From Hirudinaria manillensis (Eukaryota > Annelida > Clitellata > Hirudinida > Hirudinidae), in contig CM067527.1 in NCBI GenBank assembly GCA_034509925.1, forward strand, positions 7,124,501 to 7,188,500: a stretch of DNA of 64,000 nucleotides, given 5' to 3'. Under the pieces are notes generated by a model, which was not told the origin of the DNA, ran no database searches, and saw only the letters and a program-made list of their open reading frames with translations. Below, piece by piece: positions 1,129 through 58,922 of the stretch; position 1 is the stretch's first letter, and each line of letters begins with the position of its first letter. The position numbers were made by a program, and so were the translations under genes.

Positions 1129-2611
1129 TATATCATAATAATATATGATAATAATAATGATACATATATAATAATATTATGTATATTATTAATATTATTA
1201 TTTTATTTATATTTACTAATGTAATAATAATAATATGATATTACTATTATTATTATAATATTATTATTATTATTAAGGAATTGTTGTTATATTTCATTAC
1301 GCTATTAATAAATTATCACATTGTTACTGGCTACTGTCACTTATTAACTTCATGAATGAATGTCTTAGTTTTTCAATCATTTTGAAATAAATTTTAAATA
1401 TGTTACATTTACATTTACTCTGTTATTTATAACAAATTAATAAAATAAATTATGAATAAAAAAAAATATTACCTTGAAATAATTAGAGAAAATAAATTCC
1501 AGATAGAAAAATGAGCATATTGACACAAAAAATCAATTCGAGAAAAAACTCTGTGTGTTGGCGCTGACAGCCGTGATGTGGAATAAACTCAAAAAAATGT
1601 CACGAGGTTCTGATAATGATTGCTTGTGCTGCAGCTGATGACGACGACGACGATGGCGATGGTGATGGTAGTAGTAGTGATGGTTTACCATCGTCGTCGT
1701 CGTCGTCGCCATCAACACCTGTTCGTGTTAACATCCTTGTACTACATAAAGCACGATATCCCCAATGAAGTCCTTAATGACATAGGATTAACTCCAACCT
1801 TTCACAGACTTTTTTTTACACACTTTCATCTTCCCATCCTTCAGTCCCCCATCAGTCTATCCGTCAATCCATCCCGGGTCTCAACCCTCCATCACCCATC
1901 CATAAAATCCATCCGTCCATCAATTCAGCCACTGGGCTACCAGGTTGCGTAAACTTGAAAAGATAATAATTGGTCGCAAGTCAGCATTTACCGTTTAAAC
2001 AAAGTTAATAAATAATAACTTAATTAGTTATATTATTAAATAATATTTATGTATAATTAAAACGTTTGGATGTAATTTAACATAAAACTAAGTAATATTC
2101 CTTCTTGCCATATTGCAATCAATTTAACTCATTGATTATACTTCACTTTCAAAGCACCATTTGCAAAACTTCATTTTTAATATATTCGTGGATGTGAAAT
2201 ATAAATATTATATCATATTTTATATTATTATATAATAAAATTACACAAATATTGATCCTGCAGTTGCATAAAATCCCAAGGTCTGCATAAAAACATTTCA
2301 ACACCTTTTTAATAAAACAATAAATAAAAATTTATTATTAAAAACAATTATAATTAATGCAGATTAAATGAAGATCTAAAGCTGACTACCAAAGGGCGTA
2401 ACTTAATGTCATTAATTATTCATTAAAAAGTATGAATATTCATTAACTCACTCATTTAATATTCATTAAATCATAAATATTTTAAAGTTATAACTAATAT
2501 TTGTTGCTGTTGCTTGTGTTGTTGAAGGCACGTGTTACACATAAGTGTTGCCATCGCTGGTCTTGGCAATGTTTATCGATCTTTCTAGTGGCAGGATTTG
2601 ATTGGACCAGG

Positions 2612-3011
2612 CCTGAGTGAGTGAGTGAGTGAGTGAGTGAGTGAGTGAGTGAGTGAGTGAGTGAGTGAGTGAGTGAGTGAGTGAGTGAGTGAGTGAGTGA
2701 GTGAGTGAGTGAGTGAGTGAGTGAGTGAGTGAGTGAGTGAGTGAGTGAGTGAGTGAGTGAGTGAGTGAGTGAGTGAGTGAGTGAGTGAGTGAGTGAGTGA
2801 GTGAGTGAGTGAGTGAGTGAGTGAGTGAGTGAGTGAGTGAGTGAGTGAGTGAGTGAGTGAGTGAGTGAGTGAGTGAGTGAGTGAGTGAGTGAGTGAGTGA
2901 GTGAGTGAGTGAGTGAGTGAGTGAGTGAGTGAGTGAGTGAGTGAGTGAGTGAGTGAGTGAGTGAGTGAGTGAGTGAGTGAGTGAGTGAGTGAGTGAGTGA
3001 GTGAGTGAGTG
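2612..3011. repeat. (GAGT)n tetranucleotide array, about 100 units, pure
   Basis: About 400 bases of GAGT with no interruption that I can see. On the minus strand it reads as an endless Ser-Leu-Thr-His repeat, which is an artefact of the array being stop-free. A degenerate relative of the same motif lies at 9877-9975. Confidence 0.97.
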
Positions 3012-4222
3012 ATTATTTACAAAAAAATATATCTCCATGTTCACCACCATTGTCATCAACGATATCATTGTCCTCATAGACATGATTTGAAGTCTGACTT
3101 GTATTGAATCATTCGGTAAATCAATTGATTATTAGGAAGAATTCTCTGCAAGCATTTCCGTCAACGTAACCATCATCCCAACCATCTCTTCGTCGTTGTC
3201 GTCCTCAATAGGATCTTTGTCCTCATCATCTCTGATATCATCATCATGACCATCATCACCATCATCATCATCACCATCGTCATGTTCTCATTTATCATGG
3301 CCTGAGTTGTCATCAATATCGGTCCTTAAAAGTATGCATCAGATAAAAACGATTATCGCTCCATTATCGGACCAAACCATTGGTAACCATGACGACCATG
3401 GAATGATGACGGTTGCTTAATATTATAATGATTGCATTAAAATTATGAATATGTTAATTAGAGCGGTTTTGGACAATGCCTGACATTACGATGAAAGCAT
3501 GATCCAACAAATTTCCCCAACTTGACTTGACTGATTATAATTAAACATGTCATGAATATTCATGATCTCTTATTAATAAACACGGTGACTAATATTTATT
3601 AAATTTTATTTATTTATTTTAATAATTATTAACAAATTATGCGTATTTCTATCGTCATTGAAATTAAAGTAGGTTTATTAAAATTATTTGACATTAAACG
3701 TTTACCTGAAAACTGACAGAGGTTTTCCACAAATCTTCCGAGATTTTTGAGTGCATTTAAGTATAAAATACACATAAAAAAAGATGATCTCCACTCAATC
3801 ATAGGAAAGAAAATAAAGATTTAAAGAATTATTTCTTTAAAAATTTATAAAACAAAAAAGCTTCCTTGCATTTGTAAAGAGTTAAGTTAATCTGTTACGT
3901 TAAATGAAATTAAAGCTAATTAAATGAAATGGAATTTAATTAAATTAAATTTATATAATGAATATTTAAATTAAAAATACAATCAACAATTTGCAAATCG
4001 GCAAATTAGTTAAAAATCACCGTCTTTAATCTGAATATTTGTCGGAATTTGATTTTATTTTTTTAATTTAAACATTTATTTAATTAAAATTATTTATGAG
4101 TTCTTTTTCCATGCAAACGGAAATGACGTCATGGAGGCCTCCTATTGGATGAGTTAAAAGGTAACAAAAAATGATTGAAAGACGAACAGGAAATTGAAGT
4201 TTGGAAAACAACGGATTTTTGA

Positions 4223-7200: not shown

Positions 7201-7840
7201 TACATATATTACTTATTTATATATTTATTTATTTATTTATTTATTTCAATTTTAATTCTGAAGGCTTTCATTCGTCAACACGCTCTCGTTTATCTCTGAG
7301 GCTTTGAAGTCCTGCATTCAACGTTCCTTGGAAAATAAAATATTTTACTTCGAAACCTTCTGTTTTTTTCTTTCCTTTTTTTGTGCTTTGAAAAGTTATT
7401 TTTTATTTTAATTTCTTTTTATTTCTTCCACTTCACTTTTCAATTGTTGATGGGGGGAGTGACCTTTGGATTAGATGAAGATGTCATTGTCACAACAATG
7501 ATTATTATCATCATCATCACTTTCTTCTTTATTATTATTATAATTATTAATATTATTATTATCATCATCGTCGTTATCGTCCTCATTTTCATCACATCTT
7601 CTTCTTATGATCCCTAAAGATTCATGAGGACATCACAAGTCCATCGTCACATCATCAGACCCCAAGTGCAAACATCAATTAAATCACATTTTACCTCATA
7701 AACATTCGAACACATATTTATAATTAATAAATCATAATTTAAAAAAAAACTAAAAACACGATCTCCATCCCGGTGGGACTTTAAAAAATCTGGGTCACCA
7801 CGGCGAGGGAAATGACCTCCAGGAGTTCAGAGGTCGAAAA
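3012..7840. other. gene-free AT-rich DNA with simple repeats
   Basis: No recognisable gene. It holds (CAT)n-like words at 3230-3300, (ATT)n at 4227-4272, an AATAATAATAAA tract at 5112-5165, an (ATTC)n tract at 5479-5560, (GAT)n at 6640-6750 and T-rich (ATT/TTTA)n at 7170-7250. Open frames of 60-90 codons here are composed of these repeats or lack any family resemblance. Confidence 0.65.
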
Positions 7841-7906
7841 TGAGGTCACGTTACGATCGTAAACATTGGGTGGAAAAATTCAAGATATGTTGTAGTTTCA
7901 ATTCTT

Positions 7907-8455
7907 CAAAACAATATACAAAACAATATACAAAACAATATACAAAACAATATCCAAAACAATATACAGAACAATATACAAAACAATATACAAAACAATA
8001 TACAAAACAATATACAAACAATATACAAAACAATATACAGAACAATATACAAAACAATATACAAAACAATATACAAAACAATATACAGAACAATATACAG
8101 AACAATATACAGAACAATATACAGAACAATATACAGAACAATATACAAAACAATATACAGAACAATATACAGAACAATATACAGAACAATATACAGAACA
8201 ATATACAGAACAATATACAAAACAATATACAGAACAATATACAGAACAATATACAAAACAATATACAGAACAATATACAGAACAATATACAGAACAATAT
8301 ACAAAACAATATACAGAACAATATACAGAACAATATACAAAACAATATACAAAACAATATACAGAACAATATACAGAACAATATACAGAACAATATACAG
8401 AACAATATACAGAACAATATACAGAACAATATACAGAACAATATACAGAACAATA
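7907..8455 (+). repeat. 12-bp minisatellite, about 45 units of ACAATATACARA
   Basis: A 12-base unit is repeated about 45 times. The main variation is one A/G position (CAAA versus CAGA), with the A form dominating the left end and the G form the right end. A single 11-base unit near 8018 shifts the phase. Because 12 is divisible by 3 and the unit lacks stops in several frames, long artificial open frames run through it on both strands. Confidence 0.95.
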
Positions 8456-8496
8456 GCTGCAACATTAATAACTTGATTCGTTTATTATTAATGTTA

Positions 8497-8655
<159 letters not shown>

Positions 8656-8699
8656 TTACGAAGTTCGTTGCAAAGCATTTCAGAGGAATATCTAACCTT

Positions 8700-9876
<1,177 letters not shown>

Positions 9877-19717: not shown

Positions 19718-22700
19718 CCTTTATTTTCTCGGCCAAAAAAATCATCCAACAGCAAACGCGATCATCAAACACCTCAACTAACATCCACTGTCCCCCATCC
19801 GGGCCCGAGATCACCCCGGGACATACAACCGCATTCCCCAGCGCCAACAACACCGCGCTATAAACAAGCGACATCAACCATAATCAATCACTATAGTCCA
19901 ATTCGCCGGCGCCAACGTTTATGAGTTCTGCGCTTATGGAATTTCCACATAAGGTAGGTGTCCAGCAAAACCGATGTTGCCAGGTACATCATGCCGTTTC
20001 TGGACAGACCGATGCCCCGCCATGACAAGTAAGATCTGGAGGATATTACACCTCTGAAGTTGCATACAAAGGCGGTTACTATGATCTTCGGAGAGATAGC
20101 ACCCCCAGGGCTATTGTTAGACATCCAGATGTGGATGTCTTTGGAGTTATATTTCCCTGTCTTGGATGAGTGGACCTCGTCCAGTGAGGCGGTATCAGAG
20201 ACAATGGTGACGTCGCATACGATTGAATCGTCCTTACTCCACGCGACTAGGTCAGGGACTCTGATGCCTTCCTCAACTGGTATCCTCGGCTCGATTTTGG
20301 TGAAGTACCCTTTCTCGGCCAACTTCGTTTCCAGCCGATGGACGAGGTTGTTGTGCCTCTCTCGTCTCGATACATCCATTCCTGGACAAACCTGGAAAAT
20401 GTGATCCAGGCTCTCGGTGACTCTGCAACCGGCGTCACACTTGGTGTTTACCTCTGGATGATATCTGGAAACCCGGAGATTGCATGGGAGGACGCCTGCT
20501 CTGACCTTTAAGCACTTTAAGTAGTCACTCGGGAACAATCTTGAACGCCCATCCGCGATCCATTCACTGATACCGACACCCTGGAAAAAGGACTGGAGTC
20601 CAAATCCGTCTACCGAGCTGTAAAGGCTCTCGAGAGTCTCTTCCTTAAGTCGTTTTTTTGGCTGACGACTCCGAATTTAATTGCCCGAACTTCCTGTGTT
20701 CTCCAAGGACGATGCTGTTGTCCTTTAGAGTGTCGAGCAAGAATTCGTCTTCATTGCTTTTCGAGCGAGCCATCATAGATCTCATTCTGCTGGTTCTGAT
20801 GAGTGGAACCCACTTTCTGAGCTGCAGTAGTCCCAATCCACCAAATTTCAGCCCCGCATGGAAGAAGGCGGTCGGCGTGTCTTTTGGGAGGCGCAGCCAT
20901 TGCCTGACGGCAGATCTTACTTTCGTGTCTGCAGCCTTTAGAGATTTCAAAGAGATTTTATTGAAGGTAAGATAGTGCACGAGGCTTGGAATAAGGTTCG
21001 ATCTTAGGGTGTAGAGTTTTTGATTTGGCTTTAAAGGAGCTCTAGATATTGCATGCAAGGATTTATGCATTCTGTCGCCTAGTGACGCGTATTTCATTTT
21101 TGGGCCAATGTCAATTCCAAGATATCGGTAGGTGTCGAGAATGTTCATTGCCTTGATTGGCAGCTGGCTGACACTGAGGTAAGAATCCGGGTCAACAATC
21201 CAAGGACTGTTTTTCTTTTGCACTTTCGCTCTCAGTGAAGAACATTTTTGGGCATTCATAATTAGTCCAACTTTTGCCAGAGATTCCTCGACTTGTTTCA
21301 ACAACATCCTCATTCCAATATCAGTAGAGGATAGCAGGATCAAATCATCTGCGAACGCCAAATAATTGCATTTGACTGATGAACTAACATCGCCAGTCAC
21401 ACCGATGGATTGGTCTACTTCTGACATCACCATGTCGATAAACCGCGTTGAAAAGTAGAGGAGACATTGGATCTCCTTGCCTGACTCCTCTATTAACTGG
21501 TATGTCCCGACTCAATTTGCCTCCAATCTTCATTTGAACTGAACAATCGCGGTAGGCCTCTGAAATGTATCTCAACAAAAAAGGAGGAGTTCCCAATCTG
21601 TGAGCCGCTCTTACAATGGACTGGTGTGAAACCGAATCGAAGGCTTTGGTCACATCAATGAACGTGAGATTGAGATTCTGTTTCTGTTCCTTCTTTTTCT
21701 GTATGATTGCTTTCACGAGCCATATATTATCCGCCAGGCCATCACCGTGTCTGAAAGCCTTCTGACGATTTGAGATGGACCAGTGTGCGAGCATTCTCTT
21801 GCTCAGCAATCGGTGAAATAAACGACCGATGATTGATCCCACCGTAATTGGTCTAAAATCCTCTGGCTTCAGACTTTCTTGTTTCTTTGGAATGCAGGTG
21901 ACAATTCCTTTCCTGAGTGCATCGGGAGGGCATCCAGTAAATAACCAAAGCGTCATGTGAGTCGCCAGGTCCTCCGGTGCAATTTTGTTCAGATCAATTT
22001 TTTTCATGCCGTCAAAGCCGGGGGCAGAATCTTTCAATCCTTTTGCCGCGTGAATGATTTCATCGACCGTGATTGGAATGTCCATTTCATCGATAGGCTC
22101 AATCGTTTCATCCAATGGCCGGGAGTCGGTTTTGGAAGCTTGAGTGAAAAACTTCTCCCAATACTCCACCAATGTTTCATCGGAAGGACATACTGCATTT
22201 TTCTCGTAGTCACCTTTCATTACCGTTTGTGCCCCAAGACTTGGACTTTTCCTAAACAGCTGCTGGATCCTCGCATACTGCTCCTTCCGACGCCTCTCTT
22301 TTATCGCACGCTTTGAGTTGCGATTGATCCATTTGACGAATTTGCGGCCACTTGTTTGCACCTTGTCTTGCTTCTTCGTCTGATGTTTCTTTGCCACTTT
22401 TTGAGTCCTCTTCTTTGACACTGTTATGCCAGCAATCCATCTCTGATATTCTATGTTGATAAGTGACCTTTTAATCTCGTATACCTCAGTGGAATCAATG
22501 AGCGAACTGAACTCTTCATCAGACAATCGAAGAAAAAATCTTCTTCTTTCAATGAATTGCAAGGGACCAATAATATTTTCTGGGTCTAATGCTTTGCAAC
22601 AGGCTGAGATACCAGCATCGGCCTTAACGTCTGCCATTATAATATTTGAGAGAAGATGACGATATTGAGGCTTATTTCTAATCACTTTTATAGCATCCAC

Positions 22701-23580
22701 ACTGAGGGAGGGAAATTGCTGCTGAAGTGAGAGGTTGATTCTGTTTTTGTGTGTTCCCCCAAGACTAAGTTCAGCCTTGGCCAGTACATTCCATGACTCA
22801 GTGTTATGCAAATTGGGAACAAAACACTCACTATCCTCTGATGGATTAGAATCCTGACAAAAATTGGTTCCTTGATGCATCAACTCCTCATTTGCTATTG
22901 TTGAGTGATTGAGATATTTTTCTAGAGTTGTCTTGTATTTCTCGGTTAATCTACGGCTTTTGATGGCATTCAACGATCTATGTTCAAATCTTTTGTGGAG
23001 TTCCTGATTGACATTGTGAACTCCCTTTCTAATCAATTCAACCTCCATGGAAGCCAGCATGCAATATTCTTCTTCAGTCCATCTTGCCTTGGAAGAGGGA
23101 AGACCTGCTCTAATTTTATGATATTCTTCTGGATGAATTCTGTTTTCATGTATATGTTTACCTCTAACAGAAGCAAATGTCTTTGCACAGAATTCACAAT
23201 GCACCTGTGTTCCAACAGAATCTGAAGAATTTTCTTTCTTTCTTTGACAGCCAAAGACTTTATTCTGACAGTTCTTATCTTCCATAATCACCAAACCAAC
23301 ACCAAATACAATCAACCGCTGAGGAATAACGATTCCTGTGTTTGTAAACCTGTTTGTTACCCGAAAGAAATGTCGAATACAACGGGTGTGCAGGTATATT
23401 TTCCCCTTTTTCTAAATTCCCTCGGGGAAGTAGGCTGTTCACCGAAAGACAAACTAACGGTAGGGGACACGAGCAGAAAGTAAAATCAATTAAAAAAATT
23501 GACTTTGAAGCGATGTTTAATCGTTTAAACTCGAGAGCCAAAACAAAACATGCGCACTTATCGCTCGCTCGAACATAAAC
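19681..23580 (-). mobile_element. R2-clade non-LTR retrotransposon, near full length, non-rDNA site
   Basis: About 3.9 kb on the minus strand. The 3' end carries a poly(A) of about 37-39 (T run 19679-19717) and the 5' end abuts (TAT)n at 23581. It encodes N-terminal C2H2 zinc finger, Myb-like domain, reverse transcriptase, CCHC knuckle and restriction-like endonuclease in R2 order. The flanks are (TAA)n and not 28S rDNA, so this is not a classical R2 insertion. Only two coding breaks are seen, both single-base changes in homopolymers. No target-site duplication can be defined because both flanks are simple repeat. Confidence 0.88.
19891..23284 (-). pseudogene. R2-clade ORF: ZF-Myb-RT-CCHC-RLE, two frameshifts
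   Basis: Likely start is the ATG at 23282-23284. From the N-terminus: C2H2 finger C30-x2-C33...H46...H51 ending in HPEEYH; Myb-like region about 68-118 beginning ARWTEEEYCML; reverse transcriptase with FIDVTKAFDSV, RGVRQGDPMSPLLFN and the catalytic LAFADD; knuckle CDAGC...H...C (CX3CX7HX4C); endonuclease PD...D...CDVTIVSD. A single extra base in the AAA run at 21440-21442 breaks the frame just after LLFN, before the FADD motif. A second shift sits in the seven-T run at 20653-20659. Both are in homopolymers, so an assembly or base-call error is as likely as true decay. Stop at 19891-19893. The role is target-primed reverse transcription of its own RNA. Confidence 0.88.
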
Positions 23581-38619: not shown

Positions 38620-39345
38620 ATGTCTAGAAGGGAGTGGGAAGAACGTCTGGGCGGCAAAGAAATACCTGCTAGGTGTCTCAAGAGAATTCAAAGGGACATA
38701 AGTACGTTGATTAAAAATCCAATTGGAGGAATATATGCGTTATCAGACGAGGCAAACATTAGAAAATTGCAACTTCTTATCGTGGGTCCTCCAGGTACCG
38801 CATATCACGGAGGGATGATTACTTTCCTGATTGGTTTTACTGATGAATATCCTTTGAAACCACCATTGGTGCATTGCGAGACGTCATCCGGAATACGATT
38901 TCATCCGCACATCTATGAAGATGGTTCAATATGCCTTAGCATTTTAGAGGCATTTGGTGGTCCAGGATGGTCACCGGTGATTACATTGTCAACCTTAGCC
39001 ATCACTCTTCAGTCATTTCTGAGTGATAAGCCTTACCATCACGTAAATGGATATAATGAAAAGGACGAGGAATCAGTCAAGTTTTACAACTTTGCAGTTC
39101 AACACCAGATCATTAAGGCTGCTGTTATTAATGTTATGGAGAATATAGACAGGTGTGATGAATATTTTGTTGAGAAGATCAAAGCGATATTTAACGAAAA
39201 TTACGACCATTATATAAATTTCTGCAAAGAAAACATGCATCTTGATGGTCAAATATGCAAAGGTCCTTACGGAGATTTCAAATATGAATTCAAATTTTTT
39301 CTTGAAAAACTCGAGTTAATTAAACAGAATTTGGTGACGAAATGA
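38620..39345 (+). CDS. UBE2Z-like: UBE2Z-like ubiquitin-conjugating enzyme, copy A
   Basis: E2 enzyme carrying ubiquitin (or, for the UBE2Z/USE1 family, ubiquitin and FAT10 charged by UBA6) as a thioester. Single exon, 241 residues. The UBC fold starts at about CLKRIQRDI (residue 19); the P-x-x-P-P strand EYPLKPPLVH follows; the active site is SICLSILEAFGGPGWSP with catalytic C105. The long C-terminal extension (VINVMENID..., MHLDGQICKGPYGDFKYEF) matches the UBE2Z type. The canonical HPN is HPH (H95-P96-H97), so the usual oxyanion asparagine is replaced. Downstream AATAAA lies at 39405-39410. The intron-free frame suggests a retrocopy origin before the local duplication; I infer this, since no parent gene is in the window. 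Paralogue B at 58197 is about 93% identical. Confidence 0.85.
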   Translation: MSRREWEERLGGKEIPARCLKRIQRDISTLIKNPIGGIYALSDEANIRKLQLLIVGPPGTAYHGGMITFLIGFTDEYPLKPPLVHCETSSGIRFHPHIYEDGSICLSILEAFGGPGWSPVITLSTLAITLQSFLSDKPYHHVNGYNEKDEESVKFYNFAVQHQIIKAAVINVMENIDRCDEYFVEKIKAIFNENYDHYINFCKENMHLDGQICKGPYGDFKYEFKFFLEKLELIKQNLVTK

Positions 39346-42345: not shown

Positions 42346-42958
42346 TATTTCATGACAAGGCACTCTCTTTCCTCCTATCGGCTTTAAAGTTTGTAGTTCT
42401 CTCCCAGCAGTACTTCCTGAAGTGGCTTTGCAGATTATAAAACCCTCCGAAGCTTCTCCTTAGCAGATGTGCATTATCAAACCTTTCATCAAGTTCATTT
42501 GCAAACATACAATTGCGATCAGCTGGACATGCATGTCTTTCGACCCCAATTCTACTCACTGTGATATTAGATAGCCTATTTTTACACAGCTTCTCATAAA
42601 CTGATGCCTTGATTTATTTTATATCACAGCAAGTGTCCCCTCCTTAAACCCACCACTGGTTGAGTCAAACTTATCACTCGTTTATCTGTGCATTAAGAGC
42701 GATTTCTTTCAGTGCATCTGCTTATCGGTTAAAACGATTTCCTAATCCCAAGCATAAATCTTTAATCATTATCATAACCATCGAGAAGAAATAAATGGTT
42801 TAAATTCCGCTGCAGGGATCCACTTGGACAGAAGGAAATGCTTGTTGTTCTAATTCTGTTGGTGGCTTCAACTATTTCAGGTGATGCACCAGACTACTTT
42901 AGCTTTTTTTTAATTTTAGATTAAGAAATTGGAAATAAAAATGAAATTAACGAATTGT
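42346..42958. other. no gene seen
   Basis: Mixed-composition DNA. The short minus-strand frame at 42350-42559 (Cys-bearing, ACPADRNCMFANELDERF) is not recognised and has no splice context. Confidence 0.4.
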
Positions 42959-43508
<550 letters not shown>

Positions 43509-44324
43509 CGTCATCATCATCACCAAGTAAATTAACTTTTGTTATTTCACGTTTTAGGACATTATCCTAGGTTTGAAGGGATGTCATGTCGCTACGTAAA
43601 CATTGATTTTTTTTATTATTTCAGTTATTTCGTTATTTTAGTCGCATAGTTTTGTTTAGGGATGGGATTGCCCCTGGGGGTTGTGGTGCAGTAATTTCAG
43701 ATGCCGTGAGTAAAATTTTTTACCTAGCCACGCTTTCTGGAGACATTATATAACTAGTTACAATTATGACTAGTCGTGTTTATTATAATATTATAATAAT
43801 TAAGTTCATAAAATTGTTAAAAAGATTTATTATCTGCTGCAGTTTTAATATCAACGTCTTGAGCGTTTATTGGATGTCACGGTTGAGTTCTAAATGAAGT
43901 TGTAGATACCAAATGATGTTGTTATTACTGCACCTGATGCACCCTCCAATCGTGCACGTGTGATTCCTAAAATGCTGTTTATTCAAAGAGCAATCAATTC
44001 AAAAACAATTATTTTATTTAATTATGTTACTCGGACGGAACTATATTTTCTTAAAATTCTATCTATATTAAGTGGCGATTTCATAAAAAAATAAATCACG
44101 TAAAAAACAAAATTAAATAATGATGAAGTGATAATGTATATTGGAAATTTTGAAAAATAGTAACATTTTATTGAAGATTATCCGCTCATAAAAAAGATCG
44201 GTGAAGCGTGCCAAGAGGTTGGAAAATGAATCGATTGGTCTACTGTGTTCGATTAAGCTGTTAATTAATACGTTGTTATATTTAATTGATTATATTAGTT
44301 AGAATTATTATTATTAGTGATGCA

Positions 44325-44397: not shown

Positions 44398-50499
<6,102 letters not shown>

Positions 50500-50796
50500 T
50501 GTTGGATCCCTAGATCCAATAAATTGAATAATATTTAAAATTATATTGCCGATTAATTATTTTAATAATTAATTAAATTTAGTGGCAATATAATTTGAGA
50601 ATTAAATTGGTGCTATTCAGACTCTTTGGTTATGTACCTTTGACAAATGGATTTATATCGGAAAGTAGAGCGAGAGTAATAGAAACAGCAGATTTCAAGA
50701 CTTAATCAATTAAGCATTTTACATCTTCCAAGCCATCTGACAACTTTCAATAAACCTGCCCTTCTATAATTAGTTTGAGGACCCCGGGTTATTACA
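50500..50796 (+). repeat. left LTR of the SAP element
   Basis: 297 bases, TG...CA. Contains AATAAA words (CCAATAAATTG, TCAATAAACC). Identical by eye to the right LTR. Confidence 0.95.
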
Positions 50797-50797
50797 T

Positions 50798-50816
50798 TGG
50801 TGTCAGGAGTGGGATT
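50798..50816 (+). promoter_or_regulatory. primer-binding site, tRNA-Leu
   Basis: TGGTGTCAGGAGTGGGATT starts one base after the left LTR. It is the reverse complement of the 3' 19 bases (with CCA) of a metazoan tRNA-Leu; this rests on remembered tRNA sequence. Confidence 0.85.
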
Positions 50817-50877
50817 TAGAGTTAAAGGGTATCCAAAAGTAACTAAAGTAGAAGCTTGTTTAGTTGAAAAGTGAACG

Positions 50878-52032
50878 ATGCCGAAGTACTTGGATGAATT
50901 GTACGTGCCTCGATTGAGACAAGAATTGAGAGAGCGTGGCCTGGATTGGAAAGGCACGAAAGCTGAGATACGAGAGCGACTTGGGACATGGCTGACAGAG
51001 AATGGCCATGACCCAGAGGAATACGAATTCGAGAATCCATCCCATAAAAAGATGGATGAATTTCTTGATTTTATGAAAAAGTCCGTAGATGAGATGAGGG
51101 AATGTATTAGGAGTATTAGGGGTGATTTGAAAAACAGAGCGGTTCCATGCCAGGATGTCTCGTTGGCTTCGGGTGAAGACTCTGCCGAGAAGAGTCCTGT
51201 TGGTTCTTTTGAGGAGAGCAAAGTGGTGCTTCCATCTTGCGAAGAACAAGGAGAGGAACTCTGCAAAAAGGTTACCAACGAGGAACAAATCATGTCCGTT
51301 GTTCCAGGTACCGTTTCTGGCAGCGTTGGGATGGAGTCATTAGAGGGCACATCCAACCACAGTGCGTGTGTGTCTCTAGAAGTTCTGTGCGTGATGGCAG
51401 ACTTAGGGAACTCGACGTTGGAGCCCATAGAGTTACCAGATCAGGTCGAGTCGTCAGCAGGGCCCAGAGAGCTCACGGAGGTTTTAGTGGAGCAAGTGGG
51501 GCTTTCGGAGGAGCCTGTGGGATTGCCGGTGGATCATGTGGAGTTGTTGGTGCAGCTCGAGGAGTTACTGATGAGTCACGTGGAGTTGCCGGTGGAGCAC
51601 ACGGATTTGATGGTGGAACAAGTAGAGTCTACAGAACAGCCCATGGATTTACCAGCGGATGTTTCGGCTCCATTGGAAATAACAGAAGGGAGTGCTCGGG
51701 ATTTCAGGAGAGTGCCTAGCATGGAAAGTGGAGCAGGTGATCCTGAGGAGAGTCTGGGATCTGGCGACATCGTGGAGCAGGAGAGTGTGCATAGAAATGG
51801 CGATGTTCCGCGGCTGAAACTTGCGGGACGCAGAAGTAAAAGGGAGGAGACAGAAATCCCAGAAGATGACAAAGCAAATGGATCTGGGATTTGCAGCCAT
51901 GAGATTGTTGGAAGATCGGATCCTATTCCGAGAGTAAAAATGAAAATGGGAATAGATGTCTGTTCGGGACGAACAGATTTAAGGAGGGGGCAGTGTTGGA
52001 TCCCTAGATCCAATAAATTGAATAATATTTAA
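50878..52032 (+). CDS. SAP-domain protein of the young LTR element
   Basis: 384 residues. Residues about 5-42 form a SAP DNA/RNA-binding motif: LYVPRLRQELRERGLDWKG then KAEIRERLGTWL. Next is a short helical stretch (KKMDEFLDFMKKSVDEMRE, about 57-75) that could oligomerise. The middle is an acidic, Val/Leu/Pro-rich degenerate repeat with words such as VGLPVDHVELLV and VELPVEHTDLMV (about 195-270). A basic patch (LAGRRSKREE) and a charged tail follow. No CCHC knuckle, protease or capsid motif is recognised. The final ~13 codons and the stop lie inside the right LTR. It may act as a gag-like RNA or chromatin tether; that is inference. Confidence 0.75.
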   Translation: MPKYLDELYVPRLRQELRERGLDWKGTKAEIRERLGTWLTENGHDPEEYEFENPSHKKMDEFLDFMKKSVDEMRECIRSIRGDLKNRAVPCQDVSLASGEDSAEKSPVGSFEESKVVLPSCEEQGEELCKKVTNEEQIMSVVPGTVSGSVGMESLEGTSNHSACVSLEVLCVMADLGNSTLEPIELPDQVESSAGPRELTEVLVEQVGLSEEPVGLPVDHVELLVQLEELLMSHVELPVEHTDLMVEQVESTEQPMDLPADVSAPLEITEGSARDFRRVPSMESGAGDPEESLGSGDIVEQESVHRNGDVPRLKLAGRRSKREETEIPEDDKANGSGICSHEIVGRSDPIPRVKMKMGIDVCSGRTDLRRGQCWIPRSNKLNNI

Positions 52033-52290
52033 AATTATATTGCCGATTAATTATTTTAATAATTAATTAAATTTAGTGGCAATATAATTTGAGAATTAAA
52101 TTGGTGCTATTCAGACTCTTTGGTTATGTACCTTTGACAAATGGATTTATATCGGAAAGTAGAGCGAGAGTAATAGAAACAGCAGATTTCAAGACTTAAT
52201 CAATTAAGCATTTTACATCTTCCAAGCCATCTGACAACTTTCAATAAACCTGCCCTTCTATAATTAGTTTGAGGACCCCGGGTTATTACA
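51994..52290 (+). repeat. right LTR of the SAP element
   Basis: 297 bases, same length as the left LTR and with no difference seen by eye. Followed by ATAT, the target duplication. Confidence 0.95.
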
Positions 52291-52299
52291 ATATAATAT

Positions 52300-53489: not shown

Positions 53490-54227
53490 AATGGCGACAT
53501 AGGAGTTGCAGCGTCAGTTGTCAGATCTTCAACAGCAACTACAGAATCAGAGATTTTTTCATCATCGGTCTCACTTTCTGCTGGAAGTTTGCCTGAAAGC
53601 AAACATCTAGATGGTAGCAATTACAGTGAGTGATGAAAAATTTTCTTATTGTGGCATTGCGTGGAGCCAAGAGAGGGACAGAAAATAGATCCAGATCTTG
53701 ACAGGAGAACGCTTGCTAAAATCAATCTTAGCCTGAAACTTTCAGTTGATAAAGTAACAAAGAAATGTGAAACTGCATCATCTGCGTGGAACTCTCTTGA
53801 AAATGAATTTGAGAGCAACACAATAGTTCGACTTATCAAGCTGTACTCGAATTTGTTCAACACGAAATTCCAAGACTTTTTGAGCATGACCCAGTATGTT
53901 GATCATATTTTGGAGATCTGTGAACAACTGGAGAACATAGGAGAGCCATTTAGAGACAATGTTATAGTAGCAATAATCCTTGCTGGTCTTCCAGAAGCCT
54001 TCACTCCTTTGATTTTAGGAATTCAAGGTTCTCAGCAAGTCACTTCAGTGGAATTTGTGAAGCGATTGCTGCTGCAAGATGGCATTAAAGATTTAGGAAT
54101 CTCCAACGAAAAAGGTGGTGCATTCAGCACTAGAGCATTAAAGAACAGTCCTCGATGCTTCAATTGTAGAAAAATTGGTCACATACAGAAATATTGCAAA
54201 AAAGACAAGCAATCACAAAGTGAATAA
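53490..54227 (+). pseudogene. copia gag, decayed
   Basis: The N-terminal part is broken by an early TAG, by a TGA where the family has Trp (just after LDGSNYSE) and by a frameshift. From 53649 the frame is open: copia gag helical domain (SSAWNSLENEFESNTIVRL, ILAGLPEAF) and a zinc knuckle CFNCRKIGHIQKYC (CX2CX4HX4C). Ends at 54225-54227. Confidence 0.88.
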
Positions 54228-54242
54228 AAAAGCGGTGCTGAT

Positions 54243-54399
54243 ATGTCAAATTTTGCTTCTTTTGTTGCAAGCAACATAGAGACTTCTGACGAGTGGTACT
54301 TGGACACAGGAGCAACCTCTCACTTGTGCTCAAAAAGGAGCATGATGAAAGACTTTGAACCAAGTAATGCACACAGTATAAAAATTGCAGATGGAACAA
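54243..54399 (+). pseudogene. copia protease fragment
   Basis: An aspartic protease start with the catalytic motif WYLDTGATSHLC is cut at IKIADGT by the nested LINE. Its continuation (LKSAGTGKI) resumes at 55537. Confidence 0.9.
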
Positions 54400-55536
54400 T
54401 TGATTATGGTGTTCCTCAAGGTTCTATACTGGGTCCCCTTTTGTTTCTTATTTATATTAATGATTTTCAATGTTCTTCTGATCTTCTCAAAGTATTAATA
54501 TATGCTGATGATATTGTTATTTACACATCAGGAAAAAACTTAAATAATCTTATTACTTTACTCAATAATGAGTTAACTCTTTTGAAAAACTGGTTTGCGA
54601 GCAATTGTTTATCTGTCAATGTTTACAAATCGAATTTTCTGGTTTTTCATTCTTCTAGAAAGGTCATTGAATGTAACAACTCTCTCTACATAGATAGGTT
54701 TTCCCTTAAAAGAGTCACAAGTATTAGATATTTAGGGATCGCAATAGATGAACACCTTTCTTGGCTTAATCATATATCTTATGTACAAAATCGCGTCTCT
54801 AGAAATATTGGAATAATCTCAAGGATTCGGCCTTTTATCAACACAAAAATAGCACTTTTATTATATTTCTCACTCATCTAGCCCTACCTAACTTATTGCA
54901 ATATCATATGGGCTTCTACATACAGGTCACACTTGCATCAGTTATCAATATTACAAAAACGGATTGTGCGTGTCATTTTCCTGCTGCCGCCTTTTTCATC
55001 AACTGTTTCTGCCTTTACAAACAATAATCTACTAAGTTTAACGCAAATTCATGAATTACAAACTGCCCTTTTTATGTTTGCTTATCACTTCAATTCTATT
55101 CCTAAAATATTTTCAGACTTTTTCATAACAAGCAATAATTATAACAATCCTTCTTATTTCTTACGTAACACTCACGAATACAGTCCTACCTTTGCTAAAT
55201 CTACTTTGAAATTATTTTCTATACAGTGTTATGGTCCCAGATTATATACCTCAATACCAGATTCAATTAGGGAGTTAACTTGTTTACATTCATGTCCTTT
55301 TGAGTTATTATTCTTGTTGTTTAAAAAATTGTATAAGTCTCATCTTGTGAGAGATGCCTCAGTTGCTTGAGTTTACATGTTTGTATTATATATGATTTCC
55401 AGGACCAGTCTGTTTAGCGGAAGCTTGCGCTTCCTTAAGACTGACCCTATGAGTTTATTTTATATTTTAAGTTCATTTGTTTCGTTGTGTTATGTACATA
55501 ATTGTTTGTTTAATAAACTCATAAACTCAAAAAAAA
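54400..55536 (+). mobile_element. 5'-truncated LINE nested in copia (CR1/Jockey-like)
   Basis: It begins inside the reverse transcriptase at YGVPQGSILGPLLFLIYIND, with catalytic YADDIVIY and thumb segment RYLGIAIDEHLSWLNHI. One stop (54881) separates the C-terminal part (ILQKRIVRVIF). The 3' end is two copies of ATAAACTC followed by A7, the short 3' repeat style of CR1-type elements. Same strand as copia. No clear target duplication. Confidence 0.85.
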
Positions 55537-56939
55537 TGCTGAAAAGTGCTGGTACAGGGAAAATCCCAATCCCATTAACCACTGGCAAAACCATGGATGC
55601 CAATGATGTCTTGTATGTGCCAGACTTGTCAATAAATCTTCTAGCTGTGAACAGAATTGCACGTTTTGGAAGAAGCATTATTTTTGATCAGCATGGATGC
55701 AAAAAAAAAGATGCAAATGTTGATCAAGCCATTCAGGTCTCTCAGAAATCAATTCTTGGAACTGCCACACAGGTGAATGGATTGTATGTTTTAGATAAAG
55801 AGAAAACAACTAGCTTCTTCACATGCACATCATCGGATAACAACATTTGGCATCGAAGACTAAGTCACCTGAACAGACACTCACTCAATCAATTAAGTAA
55901 AGGTATGACCATTGGTATTCAGATAAAAGGAGACAAACCAAGTCCTTGTGAGGCTTGTGTAAAAGGAAAGCACATCAGAAAGCCATTTGTGTCGAATGGT
56001 ACAAGAAAAACTAAAGCTTTTCTGGAACTGGTTCATTCGGATATTTGTGGTCCCATGCCAATAGCTTTGATTGGTGGAGCGAAATAATGTGTTACGTTTA
56101 TTGATGACTATAGTAGATTCTGCTTTGTATATTTTATAAATTCAAAAGTCATTGAAAAATTCAAAGAGTTCAAGCTTCTGGTTGAAAACCAGACAAATAG
56201 AAAAATAAAAGCTTTTAGAACAGACAATGGTCTAGAATATGTCAATAATCTTTTTTCTGAGATCTTGAAGAGCAATGGAATAATTCATGAAAAAACTATT
56301 GCATATTCCCCAGAGCAAAATGGCTTAGCAGAGAGGTTCAATAGAACATTGCTAGAATGTGCAAGGAACATGCTGATGGACTCAGGAGTAAGCAGTGATT
56401 TATGGGCCGAAGCAGTCGCCACAGCTACTTATCTCAAAAATAGGTCTCCCACCAAGTCGCTGAAAAGTATGACTCCTTTTGAAGCATGGATGAAGAGAAA
56501 ACCAAATCTTAGTCATCTCAAGATTTTTGGTTGCAAGGCACTAGTGAGAATTCCTGATGCACATAGAAAAAAACTGAATTCAAAGTCTAAAGAGTGCATA
56601 CTTGTTGGTTACAGTGAGTACACAAAAGGATACAGATTAATTGACCCTATCACAAAAAGACTTCAAGAAGCTAAAGATATGGTATTCTTTGAGACACAAT
56701 TCTTGTTGACTGACAATACATTTCCTTTTTCACCTCAAGAAGAATCACAGGAACCCACAAATGTAACAGAAAGAAGGATCATCCCCGAAACAGATGATCA
56801 CCTACAAGAACCTCTTGAAGATCAAATTGAGATGAGGACAACATGTCAAGACAGTATTTCTTATGAGGCAAGTGATGTTGAATCTGAAATGGATGATTCA
56901 GAAGCACCAAAGGGAAAAGAAAGACCTCGAAGGAATTGA
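55537..56939 (+). pseudogene. copia protease end and integrase
   Basis: GAG-pre-integrase and integrase. HHCC zinc site IWHRRLSHLNRHSLNQL...CEACVKGKH; then ELVHSDICGPMP. A TAA at 56087 interrupts the frame before VTFIDDYSRF (first catalytic Asp). FRTDNGLEYV (second Asp) and SPEQNGLAERFNRT (Glu) follow. The linker after DMVFFET is acidic. One nonsense codon appears to be the main lesion in this part. Confidence 0.9.
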
Positions 56940-58196: not shown

Positions 58197-58922
58197 ATGT
58201 CTAGAAGGGAGTGGGAAGAAAGTCTGGGCGGCAAAGAAATACCTGCTAGGTGTCTCAAGAGAATTCAAAGGGACATAAGTACGTTGATTAAAAATCCAAT
58301 TGAAGGAATATATGCGTTATCAGACGAGGCAAACATTAGAAAATTGCAACTTCTTATCGTGGGTCCTCCAGGTACCGCATATCACGGAGGGATGATTACT
58401 TTCCTGATTGGTTTTACTGATAACTATCCCATGAAACCACCAATGGTGTATTGCGAGACGTCATCCGGAATACAATTTCATCCGCACATCTATCAAGATG
58501 GTTCAATATGCCTTAGCATTTTAGGGACACATGATGGTCCAGGATGGGCACCGGTGATTACATTGTCAACTTTAGCCATCACTCTTCAGTCATTTCTGAG
58601 TGATAAACCTTACCATCACGTAAATGGATATAATGAAAAGGACGAGGAATCAGTCAAGTTTTACAACTTTGCAGTTCAACACCATATCATTAAGGCTGCT
58701 GTTATTAATGTTATGGAGAATATAGACAAGTGTGATGAATATTTTGTTGAGAAGATCAAAGCGATATTTAACGAAAATTACGACCATTATATAAATTTCT
58801 GCAAAGAAAACATGCATCTTGATGGTCAAATATGCAAAAGTCCTTATGGAGATTTCAAATATGAATTCAAATCTTTTCTTGAAAAACTCGAGTTAATTAA
58901 ACAGAATTTGGTGACGAAATGA
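58197..58922 (+). CDS. UBE2Z-like: UBE2Z-like ubiquitin-conjugating enzyme, copy B
   Basis: 241 residues, single exon, same start as copy A. 17 residues differ from copy A by my count: R9S, G36E, E76N, L79M, L83M, H85Y, R93Q, E100Q, E110G, A111T, F112H, G113D, S118A, Q163H, R178K, G215S, F226S. Catalytic C105 is kept (SICLSILGTHDGPGWAP) and the HPH in place of HPN is shared. The SILGT-x-x-GP-x-W wording of this copy is closer to vertebrate UBE2Z than copy A, so B may keep the older active-site loop; that is inference. Probably a working gene: frame intact, AATAAA at 58981-58986. Confidence 0.85.
   Translation: MSRREWEESLGGKEIPARCLKRIQRDISTLIKNPIEGIYALSDEANIRKLQLLIVGPPGTAYHGGMITFLIGFTDNYPMKPPMVYCETSSGIQFHPHIYQDGSICLSILGTHDGPGWAPVITLSTLAITLQSFLSDKPYHHVNGYNEKDEESVKFYNFAVQHHIIKAAVINVMENIDKCDEYFVEKIKAIFNENYDHYINFCKENMHLDGQICKSPYGDFKYEFKSFLEKLELIKQNLVTK

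What the first reader, a model, noticed from the sequence alone, without database searches (positions are those of the whole stretch)
50500..52290. Very young non-autonomous LTR element whose only protein is a SAP-domain protein
Seen: identical-looking 297-bp LTRs, ATAT duplication, tRNA-Leu primer site, purine tract, and one 384-codon frame with an N-terminal SAP motif and an acidic Val/Leu/Pro repeat. Known: most small non-autonomous LTR elements (TRIM, LARD types) are non-coding or carry gag remnants. Inference: the SAP protein is conserved cargo, perhaps binding element RNA or tethering to chromatin, while enzymes come from a helper. I know of no described element of exactly this make-up. 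The stop codon being supplied by the right LTR is also unusual.
Basis: partly seen in the sequence, partly recalled or inferred. Interest (0 to 1): 0.85.

Follow-up and report, generated by a model that had tools for sequence, protein, structure and literature searches.

The report
Satellite retrotransposon carrying conserved SAP protein
This is a young copy of a small jumping element that cannot move alone, appears to borrow the machinery of a larger related element in the same genome, and yet keeps its own protein, whose DNA-binding-type front end is held nearly unchanged by natural selection.

Summary
In this 148-Mb genome 40 of 40 scored whole-element matches are 99-100% identical (1,210 candidates). 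It shares a 23-bp primer site, 33 bp at the purine tract, LTR ends, 4-bp duplications and the SAP N-terminus (44% over 82 aa). So residues 1-83 are a Gag N-terminus; the ~300-residue tail was found in no gag-pol examined. The frame is selected: 28 of 38 copies keep it open into the right LTR at 345-494 aa; SAP-region dN/dS is 0.26; synonymous sites against the helper are saturated. One locus joins the small element's LTR to a helper body exactly at the primer site. Best reading: an old satellite retroelement of a SAP-Gag Gypsy helper, with its own Gag-derived accessory protein. The protein's role is inferred.

The parts
50496..50499 (.). left target-site duplication ATAT
   Evidence: sequence; 30 of 37 sampled copies with both flanks have identical 4-mers, 16 of them ATAT
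50500..50796 (+). left LTR, 297 bp, TGTTGGATCC...GGGTTATTACA
   Evidence: identical to right LTR; 155 of 191 aligned columns identical to the helper LTR, alignment score above 100 of 100 shuffles
50797..50819 (+). primer-binding site and neighbours: 23 bp identical to the helper element; 50798-50817 complementary (19 of 20) to a host tRNA 3' end
50878..52032 (+). 384-aa frame: Gag-type SAP N-terminus plus acidic low-complexity tail
50878..51126 (+). residues 1-83: SAP segment and short helix-like stretch, homologous to the helper Gag N-terminus
   Evidence: blastp E 6e-16, 44% over 82 aa; SAP residues 7-35; residues 1-52 dN/dS 0.26
51127..51959 (+). tail of about 277 residues: 57 D/E, 22 K/R, 2 aromatic; acidic Val/Leu/Pro heptad-like repeats; no Pfam or PDB match
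   Evidence: residues 84-360; last 103 residues before the LTR only
51960..51992 (+). 33 bp identical to the 3' end of the helper, where they hold the end of pol and the purine tract; in this element read in another frame
51981..51993 (+). polypurine tract
   Evidence: sequence
51994..52290 (+). right LTR; supplies the stop codon at 52030-52032
52291..52294 (.). right target-site duplication ATAT

Best explanation
The element is a recent insertion of an old, large family of satellite LTR retrotransposons. Its RNA carries the primer site, purine tract and LTR ends of a resident Ty3/Gypsy family (type copy L030) and is most likely packaged, reverse transcribed and integrated by that helper's proteins (inferred from shared anatomy plus one mini-LTR/helper recombinant). 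It has no capsid match, zinc knuckle, protease, RT or integrase of its own. It does code for one protein that selection keeps: the helper-type Gag N-terminus (SAP domain plus a short helix-like stretch) fused to an acidic, low-complexity tail of unknown origin. Inferred role, in order of my belief: the SAP end binds DNA, as SAP domains do, and so serves the nuclear phase (holding or steering satellite cDNA and integration complexes at chromatin), while the tail makes protein contacts, perhaps with helper Gag. Shown: structure, family, helper candidate, frame retention, purifying selection on SAP. Not shown: expression, helper dependence, any biochemical activity.
For: Family: 40 of 40 scored whole-element matches at 99-100%; at least 150 tail-bearing places, 109 of 150 in frames of 336 aa or more. 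Helper: L030 has 220-bp identical LTRs, GTAT duplication and a 1,673-aa frame with SAP, CCHC, protease, RT, RNase H and integrase; 46 of 149 tallied SAP hits lie in frames of 1,600 aa or more. Shared ends: 23 bp at the primer site, 33 bp at the purine tract, 12 bp at the LTR start. Recombinant: L029 runs from the last 118 bp of a small element through its LTR straight into a helper body at the primer site, ends in a helper LTR, and has ATAT on both sides. Coding constraint: 28 of 38 distinct copies open into the right LTR, 13 length classes from 345 to 494 aa; in-frame differences of 1, 3, 7-8, 21 and about 33 residues besides whole repeat units; SAP region parsimony changes by codon position 8, 4, 26, P = 1e-5, dN/dS 0.26 against 0.34 for the same region of ten helper Gags; small element against helper: synonymous differences saturated (pS 0.79), pN 0.25.
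Against: Only 1 hybrid junction of this kind was found: 1 of 75 listed places, and none of 212 places had fewer than 2 mismatches to the reverse hybrid, so exchange is rare or seldom kept. Overall dN/dS is only 0.67, against 0.88 and 0.81 when the same columns are read in the two wrong frames; residues 52-90 (1.05), 90-190 (0.75) and 270-345 (1.01) show little or no protein-level constraint. Three of 25 copies with identical LTRs have a broken frame (L016 and the tandem pair in L021), so the frame may not be needed in cis. Some tail length changes are of repeat units that are multiples of 3 anyway. No expression data. No structure prediction could be run.
Confidence: 0.72

Rival explanations
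1. Plain deletion derivative: a Gypsy element that lost most of gag and pol, whose leftover frame is open only because it amplified recently from few intact masters; the protein does nothing.
For: SAP end is helper Gag; much of the tail evolves near neutrality; broken copies with identical LTRs exist, 3 of 25.
Against: Copies of 13 length classes keep one frame to the same LTR; in a substitution-only simulation the window frame stays free of stops in 6.6% of runs at 5% divergence and 0.65% at 10%; SAP third-position excess P = 1e-5; synonymous saturation against the helper while protein identity stays 44%; an older relative (L010:3991-5657, LTRs 37 of 275 different) already has the decayed SAP and tail.
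Confidence: 0.13
2. The first ~160 coding bases are kept as an RNA signal (packaging or dimerisation), and the protein is a side effect.
For: Total change per site is lower in the SAP segment (0.25) than in the middle of the frame (0.46-0.53); packaging signals near the 5' end are usual in retroelements (recalled).
Against: Changes that do occur there are mostly at third positions (26 of 38) and synonymous sites are saturated against the helper; an RNA signal would not spare amino acids.
Confidence: 0.07
3. The protein is an interference factor: a Gag N-terminus without capsid that competes with or poisons helper Gag, favouring satellite RNA or protecting the host.
For: Shares the Gag N-terminus but no capsid or zinc knuckle match was found; truncated Gag restricts Ty1 (recalled).
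Against: Nothing here tests interaction; both helper and satellite have many young or intact copies.
Confidence: 0.08

Closest known systems
PbTRIM of the red harvester ant (PMC3532108; abstract and search passages read)
   Same: Small non-autonomous LTR element of an insect, tRNA-Leu primer site, 4-bp duplications mostly ATAT, many young copies.
   Different: PbTRIM is 480-781 bp with 152-184-bp LTRs and a non-coding interior; its authors found no autonomous partner. Here the interior codes for a selected protein and a partner is at hand. No sequence comparison with PbTRIM was made.
TR-GAG elements of plants (PMC8704663; abstract and passages read)
   Same: Non-autonomous LTR element with a single Gag-related frame and an autonomous relative; one was seen to transpose in Arabidopsis ddm1.
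   Different: TR-GAGs encode the entire GAG; this protein has only the Gag N-terminal 83 residues plus an unrelated tail. The example read is a plant copia element.
Ty3/Gypsy LTR retrotransposons (the helper L030)
   Same: Same LTR termini, primer site, purine tract, 4-bp duplication, SAP N-terminus.
   Different: The window element lacks zinc knuckle, protease, RT, RNase H and integrase.
VL30 and ETn/MusD of mouse (recalled, not looked up)
   Same: Non-autonomous elements mobilised by a related coding element.
   Different: As recalled, their gag remnants are not a selected independent protein with a new tail.

Membership tests
TRIM | under about 1,000 bp in all, non-coding interior (as stated in PMC3532108) | tested here: not met
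   1,791 bp with a selected 384-aa frame
TRIM | LTRs, primer site and purine tract present | tested here: met
LARD | about 4.4-kb LTRs and a 3.5-kb non-coding centre (as stated in PMC3532108) | tested here: not met
   297-bp LTRs, 1,197-bp coding interior
TR-GAG | a single frame encoding the entire GAG | tested here: not met
   only residues 1-83 match helper Gag; no zinc knuckle in Pfam scan. Capsid could not be tested by Pfam, since the helper's own Gag gave no capsid hit either
TR-GAG | autonomous relative sharing LTR ends | tested here: met
   L030
Ty3/Gypsy (helper L030) | protease, RT, RNase H, integrase in that order | tested here: met
   Pfam on four consecutive pieces of the frame
Ty3/Gypsy satellite (window element) | shares cis signals with a Gypsy helper | tested here: met
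Ty3/Gypsy satellite (window element) | is mobilised by that helper | not testable with these tools
   one mini-LTR/helper recombinant is indirect support
SAP domain proteins | PF02037 match over its cut-off | tested here: met
   28.2 bits against 23.9
SAP domain proteins | binds DNA | not testable with these tools
   no binding data

The most novel reading that the evidence does not exclude
A retrotransposon satellite with a selfish gene of its own: it took the SAP N-terminus of its helper's Gag long ago, fused it to a fast-changing acidic tail, and has kept the fusion by selection because the protein, acting mainly on the RNA or cDNA that made it, captures helper particles or tethers satellite cDNA to chromatin. 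This would be an LTR-element counterpart of satellite viruses that carry their own accessory protein, with an arms race recorded in the tail.
Probability: 0.33. Interest if true: 0.78.

Novelty: new variant of a known kind. Interest (0 to 1): 0.6.

Why it matters
The small non-autonomous LTR elements in the paper passages read here are either non-coding or carry a whole Gag, and the authors of the ant PbTRIM paper report no autonomous partner. Here a coding satellite and a candidate helper sit in one genome, with hundreds of junctions, many young copies and one recombinant, so the questions of what a satellite needs and why it would keep a protein can be asked directly. It also shows a Gypsy lineage whose Gag starts with a SAP domain, for which five full-text searches found no description.

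Tried and rejected
Foreign-cargo reading of SAP: rejected, since the same segment starts the Gag of the helper. Tail derived from helper gag-pol in any frame or strand: tblastx against L029, L030 and L045 gave only L029's own small-element remnant, else E 0.44 or worse; L045 covers only the 5' part of its element, so this is partial. L013 and L012 as autonomous partners: both leave the element's interior soon after the primer site and had no long gag-pol frame. Looking up the host tRNA by an exact pattern gave 0; with 2 mismatches it gave 322 places. The original TR-GAG paper is not held. The alignment A1 contains a stray one-residue row of mine (L050), to be ignored. The dN/dS values rest on 15 representative open frames chosen at over 1.5% divergence from 29; all pairs were summed, so they are not independent. 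Broken copies were left out of dN/dS.

Full report
What is there. The window element spans 50500-52290 exactly as described: two identical 297-bp LTRs, ATAT on both sides, a primer site, a purine tract and one 384-aa frame whose stop lies in the right LTR. Pfam finds only a SAP domain over its cut-off (28.2 bits, residues 7-35). The primer site agrees with 19 of 20 bases of the complement of a host tRNA 3' end that Rfam scores as tRNA; I read it by eye as tRNA-Leu(CAA) with an intron, while ARAGORN found none with bacterial settings and a low-scoring Met with introns allowed.

The family. In the window's own genome (148.4 Mb, 23 contigs) the whole element matched 1,210 candidates, of which the tool scored 40; all 40 are 99-100% identical, 39 over the whole query and one from base 15. 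The LTR/primer-site junction occurs at 492 places with up to 3 mismatches, control 0, but that pattern also takes in the helper. With the small element's own leader the count is 212, a lower bound, since the pattern already costs it 2 mismatches. A search with the tail of one copy scored 150 of 405 candidates, all at E of 1e-48 or better; 109 of the 150 lie in open frames of 336 aa or more, 4 have a stop inside the matched segment, and the longest frame is 602 aa.

The helper. SAP hits in the same genome fall largely in long frames: 46 of the 149 rows that I tallied (of 150) are in frames of 1,600 aa or more, and integrase hits lie about 3.9 kb downstream of many of them (read by eye). One copy, L030, has 220-bp LTRs identical to each other, a GTAT duplication and a 1,673-aa frame. 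Pfam on four consecutive pieces gives SAP, a sub-threshold coiled-coil hit, zinc knuckle, aspartic protease, RT, RNase H and integrase, the Ty3/Gypsy order; no capsid family was hit, so a capsid there is by eye only. With the window element it shares the first 23 bases after the LTR, 33 bases at the purine tract, the first 12 bases of the LTR and most of its last 19, and 155 of 191 aligned LTR columns. The helper junction occurs at 144 places with up to 3 mismatches, the recombinant included. A second SAP-Gag family is seen in L045, with a shorter shared primer site (16 bases) and an LTR end closer to that of the small element.

The protein. Residues 2-83 align to the helper Gag N-terminus (44%, E 6e-16); nothing beyond is significant. 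The tail was not found in L029, L030 or the 5' part of L045 in any frame, apart from the small-element remnant in L029 itself. Its 277 residues 84-360 hold 57 acidic, 22 basic and 2 aromatic residues, which suggests disorder. A profile of its last 103 residues matches no solved structure at E up to 1. The C-terminal end is the helper's pol/purine-tract stretch read in another frame, which is why the stop falls in the LTR.

Is the frame kept? I read 38 distinct copies (39 entries, the window being L001); eight of them (L001-L008) were fetched for their similarity to the window. In 28 of 38 the frame is open from the homologous ATG into the right LTR; without L001-L008 it is 20 of 30. Lengths fall in 13 classes from 345 to 494 aa, by gain and loss of a 52-residue module, of heptad cassettes, and of non-repeat pieces of 1, 3, 7-8, 21 and about 33 residues. 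Seen another way, of the first 36 exact junctions listed (the window's included), 18 lead into a two-LTR copy with the frame open, 8 into copies with it broken or ending short (L009, L011, L016, L021 twice, L023, L036, L042), and 10 were not resolved as full-length by my filter (L012, L013, L019, the first copy of L020, L022, L026, L032, L033, L034, L043). LTRs are identical in 25 of 37 copies that could be compared; 22 of those 25 have the frame open. The three exceptions are L016, with one frame change, and the tandem pair in L021, both damaged near the start.

Selection. Over 15 representatives the whole frame has dN/dS 0.67, against 0.88 and 0.81 for the two wrong frames: a modest signal. 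It is concentrated: residues 1-52 0.26, the repeat region 190-270 0.44, 345-372 0.31; residues 52-90, 90-190 and 270-345 give 1.05, 0.75 and 1.01. On a tree, changes by codon position in residues 1-52 are 8, 4 and 26 (P = 1e-5) and in 190-270 54, 47 and 88 (P = 1e-4); 52-90, 90-190, 270-345 and 345-372 show no significant third-position excess. The same SAP segment in ten helper Gags gives 0.34, and between small element and helper synonymous differences are saturated (pS 0.79) with pN 0.25. So the small element's SAP has long been separate from this helper's and has been held at the protein level. An older relative in L010 (3991-5657; LTRs differ at 37 of 275 compared sites) already has a decayed SAP and tail.

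Link to the helper. L029 begins 118 bp before the end of a small-element interior, runs through that element's LTR and continues at the primer site into a helper body (95% to L030 over 4.8 kb) and a helper-type LTR (96%); ATAT stands at both outer ends. This fits a cDNA made from both RNAs in one particle, but the left end is not an LTR end, and ATAT can match by chance in an AT-rich genome. It is the only such junction among 75 places listed; the reverse hybrid was not found (no place with fewer than 2 mismatches).

Mechanism. Most likely the satellite RNA uses helper particles and enzymes (shared signals; inferred), and its protein serves through the SAP end, which in other proteins binds DNA (recalled), with the tail as a variable contact surface. 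Whether it steers cDNA to chromatin, helps packaging, or interferes with helper Gag cannot be decided here.

Comparison with the literature. PbTRIM of an ant (PMC3532108, abstract and search passages) has the same kind of primer tRNA and ATAT duplications but is non-coding and had no known partner. TR-GAG (PMC8704663, abstract and passages) encodes a whole Gag. Five full-text searches pairing SAP with gag, Gypsy, transposon or retrotransposon terms gave 1, 1, 1, 0 and 0 papers, none of which by its title and opening abstract lines (all I saw) concerned such an element. Only the open-licence PMC library was searched, and Repbase-type libraries were not available, so the helper or satellite may be catalogued there.

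Verdict. Real, selected, and better explained than at first reading: a coding satellite of a SAP-Gag Gypsy. New variant of a known kind.

Noticed in passing
own genome C1:4489177 onward (fetched piece L056, 571 bp): 322 places match a tRNA-Leu 3'-end pattern with up to 2 mismatches; the 100 listed form a tandem array with a period of about 246 bp. Each fetched unit holds an intron-like tRNA that Rfam scores as tRNA. It is also close to the complement of the elements' primer site.
   Followed up: partly
L021:5991-9783: Two identical-looking small-element interiors share three identical LTRs in tandem, both with the same early frame break.
   Followed up: partly
L010:3991-5657: Older, decayed relative of the satellite with 13% LTR divergence, SAP start closer in look to the second helper family.
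   Followed up: partly
L045 (C12:3549700-3552500): Second Gypsy family with N-terminal SAP Gag, zinc knuckle and protease, and a 16-base version of the same primer site.
   Followed up: partly
window 38620-39345 and 58197-58922, + strand: Two very similar intronless 241-aa frames that look like E2 ubiquitin-conjugating enzymes, about 20 kb apart (by eye, no family search).
   Followed up: no
window 20645-23285 and 44478-48029, - strand: Non-LTR retrotransposon frames with RT, the first with an N-terminal zinc-finger look (by eye).
   Followed up: no
window 53649-56939, + strand: Copia-type gag and pol pieces, one frame running from a protease-like start into an RT of non-LTR look, so probably a nested insertion (by eye).
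   Followed up: no
window 48590-49601, 7840-8718, 2535-3083, 42941-43570: Long simple-repeat tracts that read as homopolymer-like frames.
   Followed up: no
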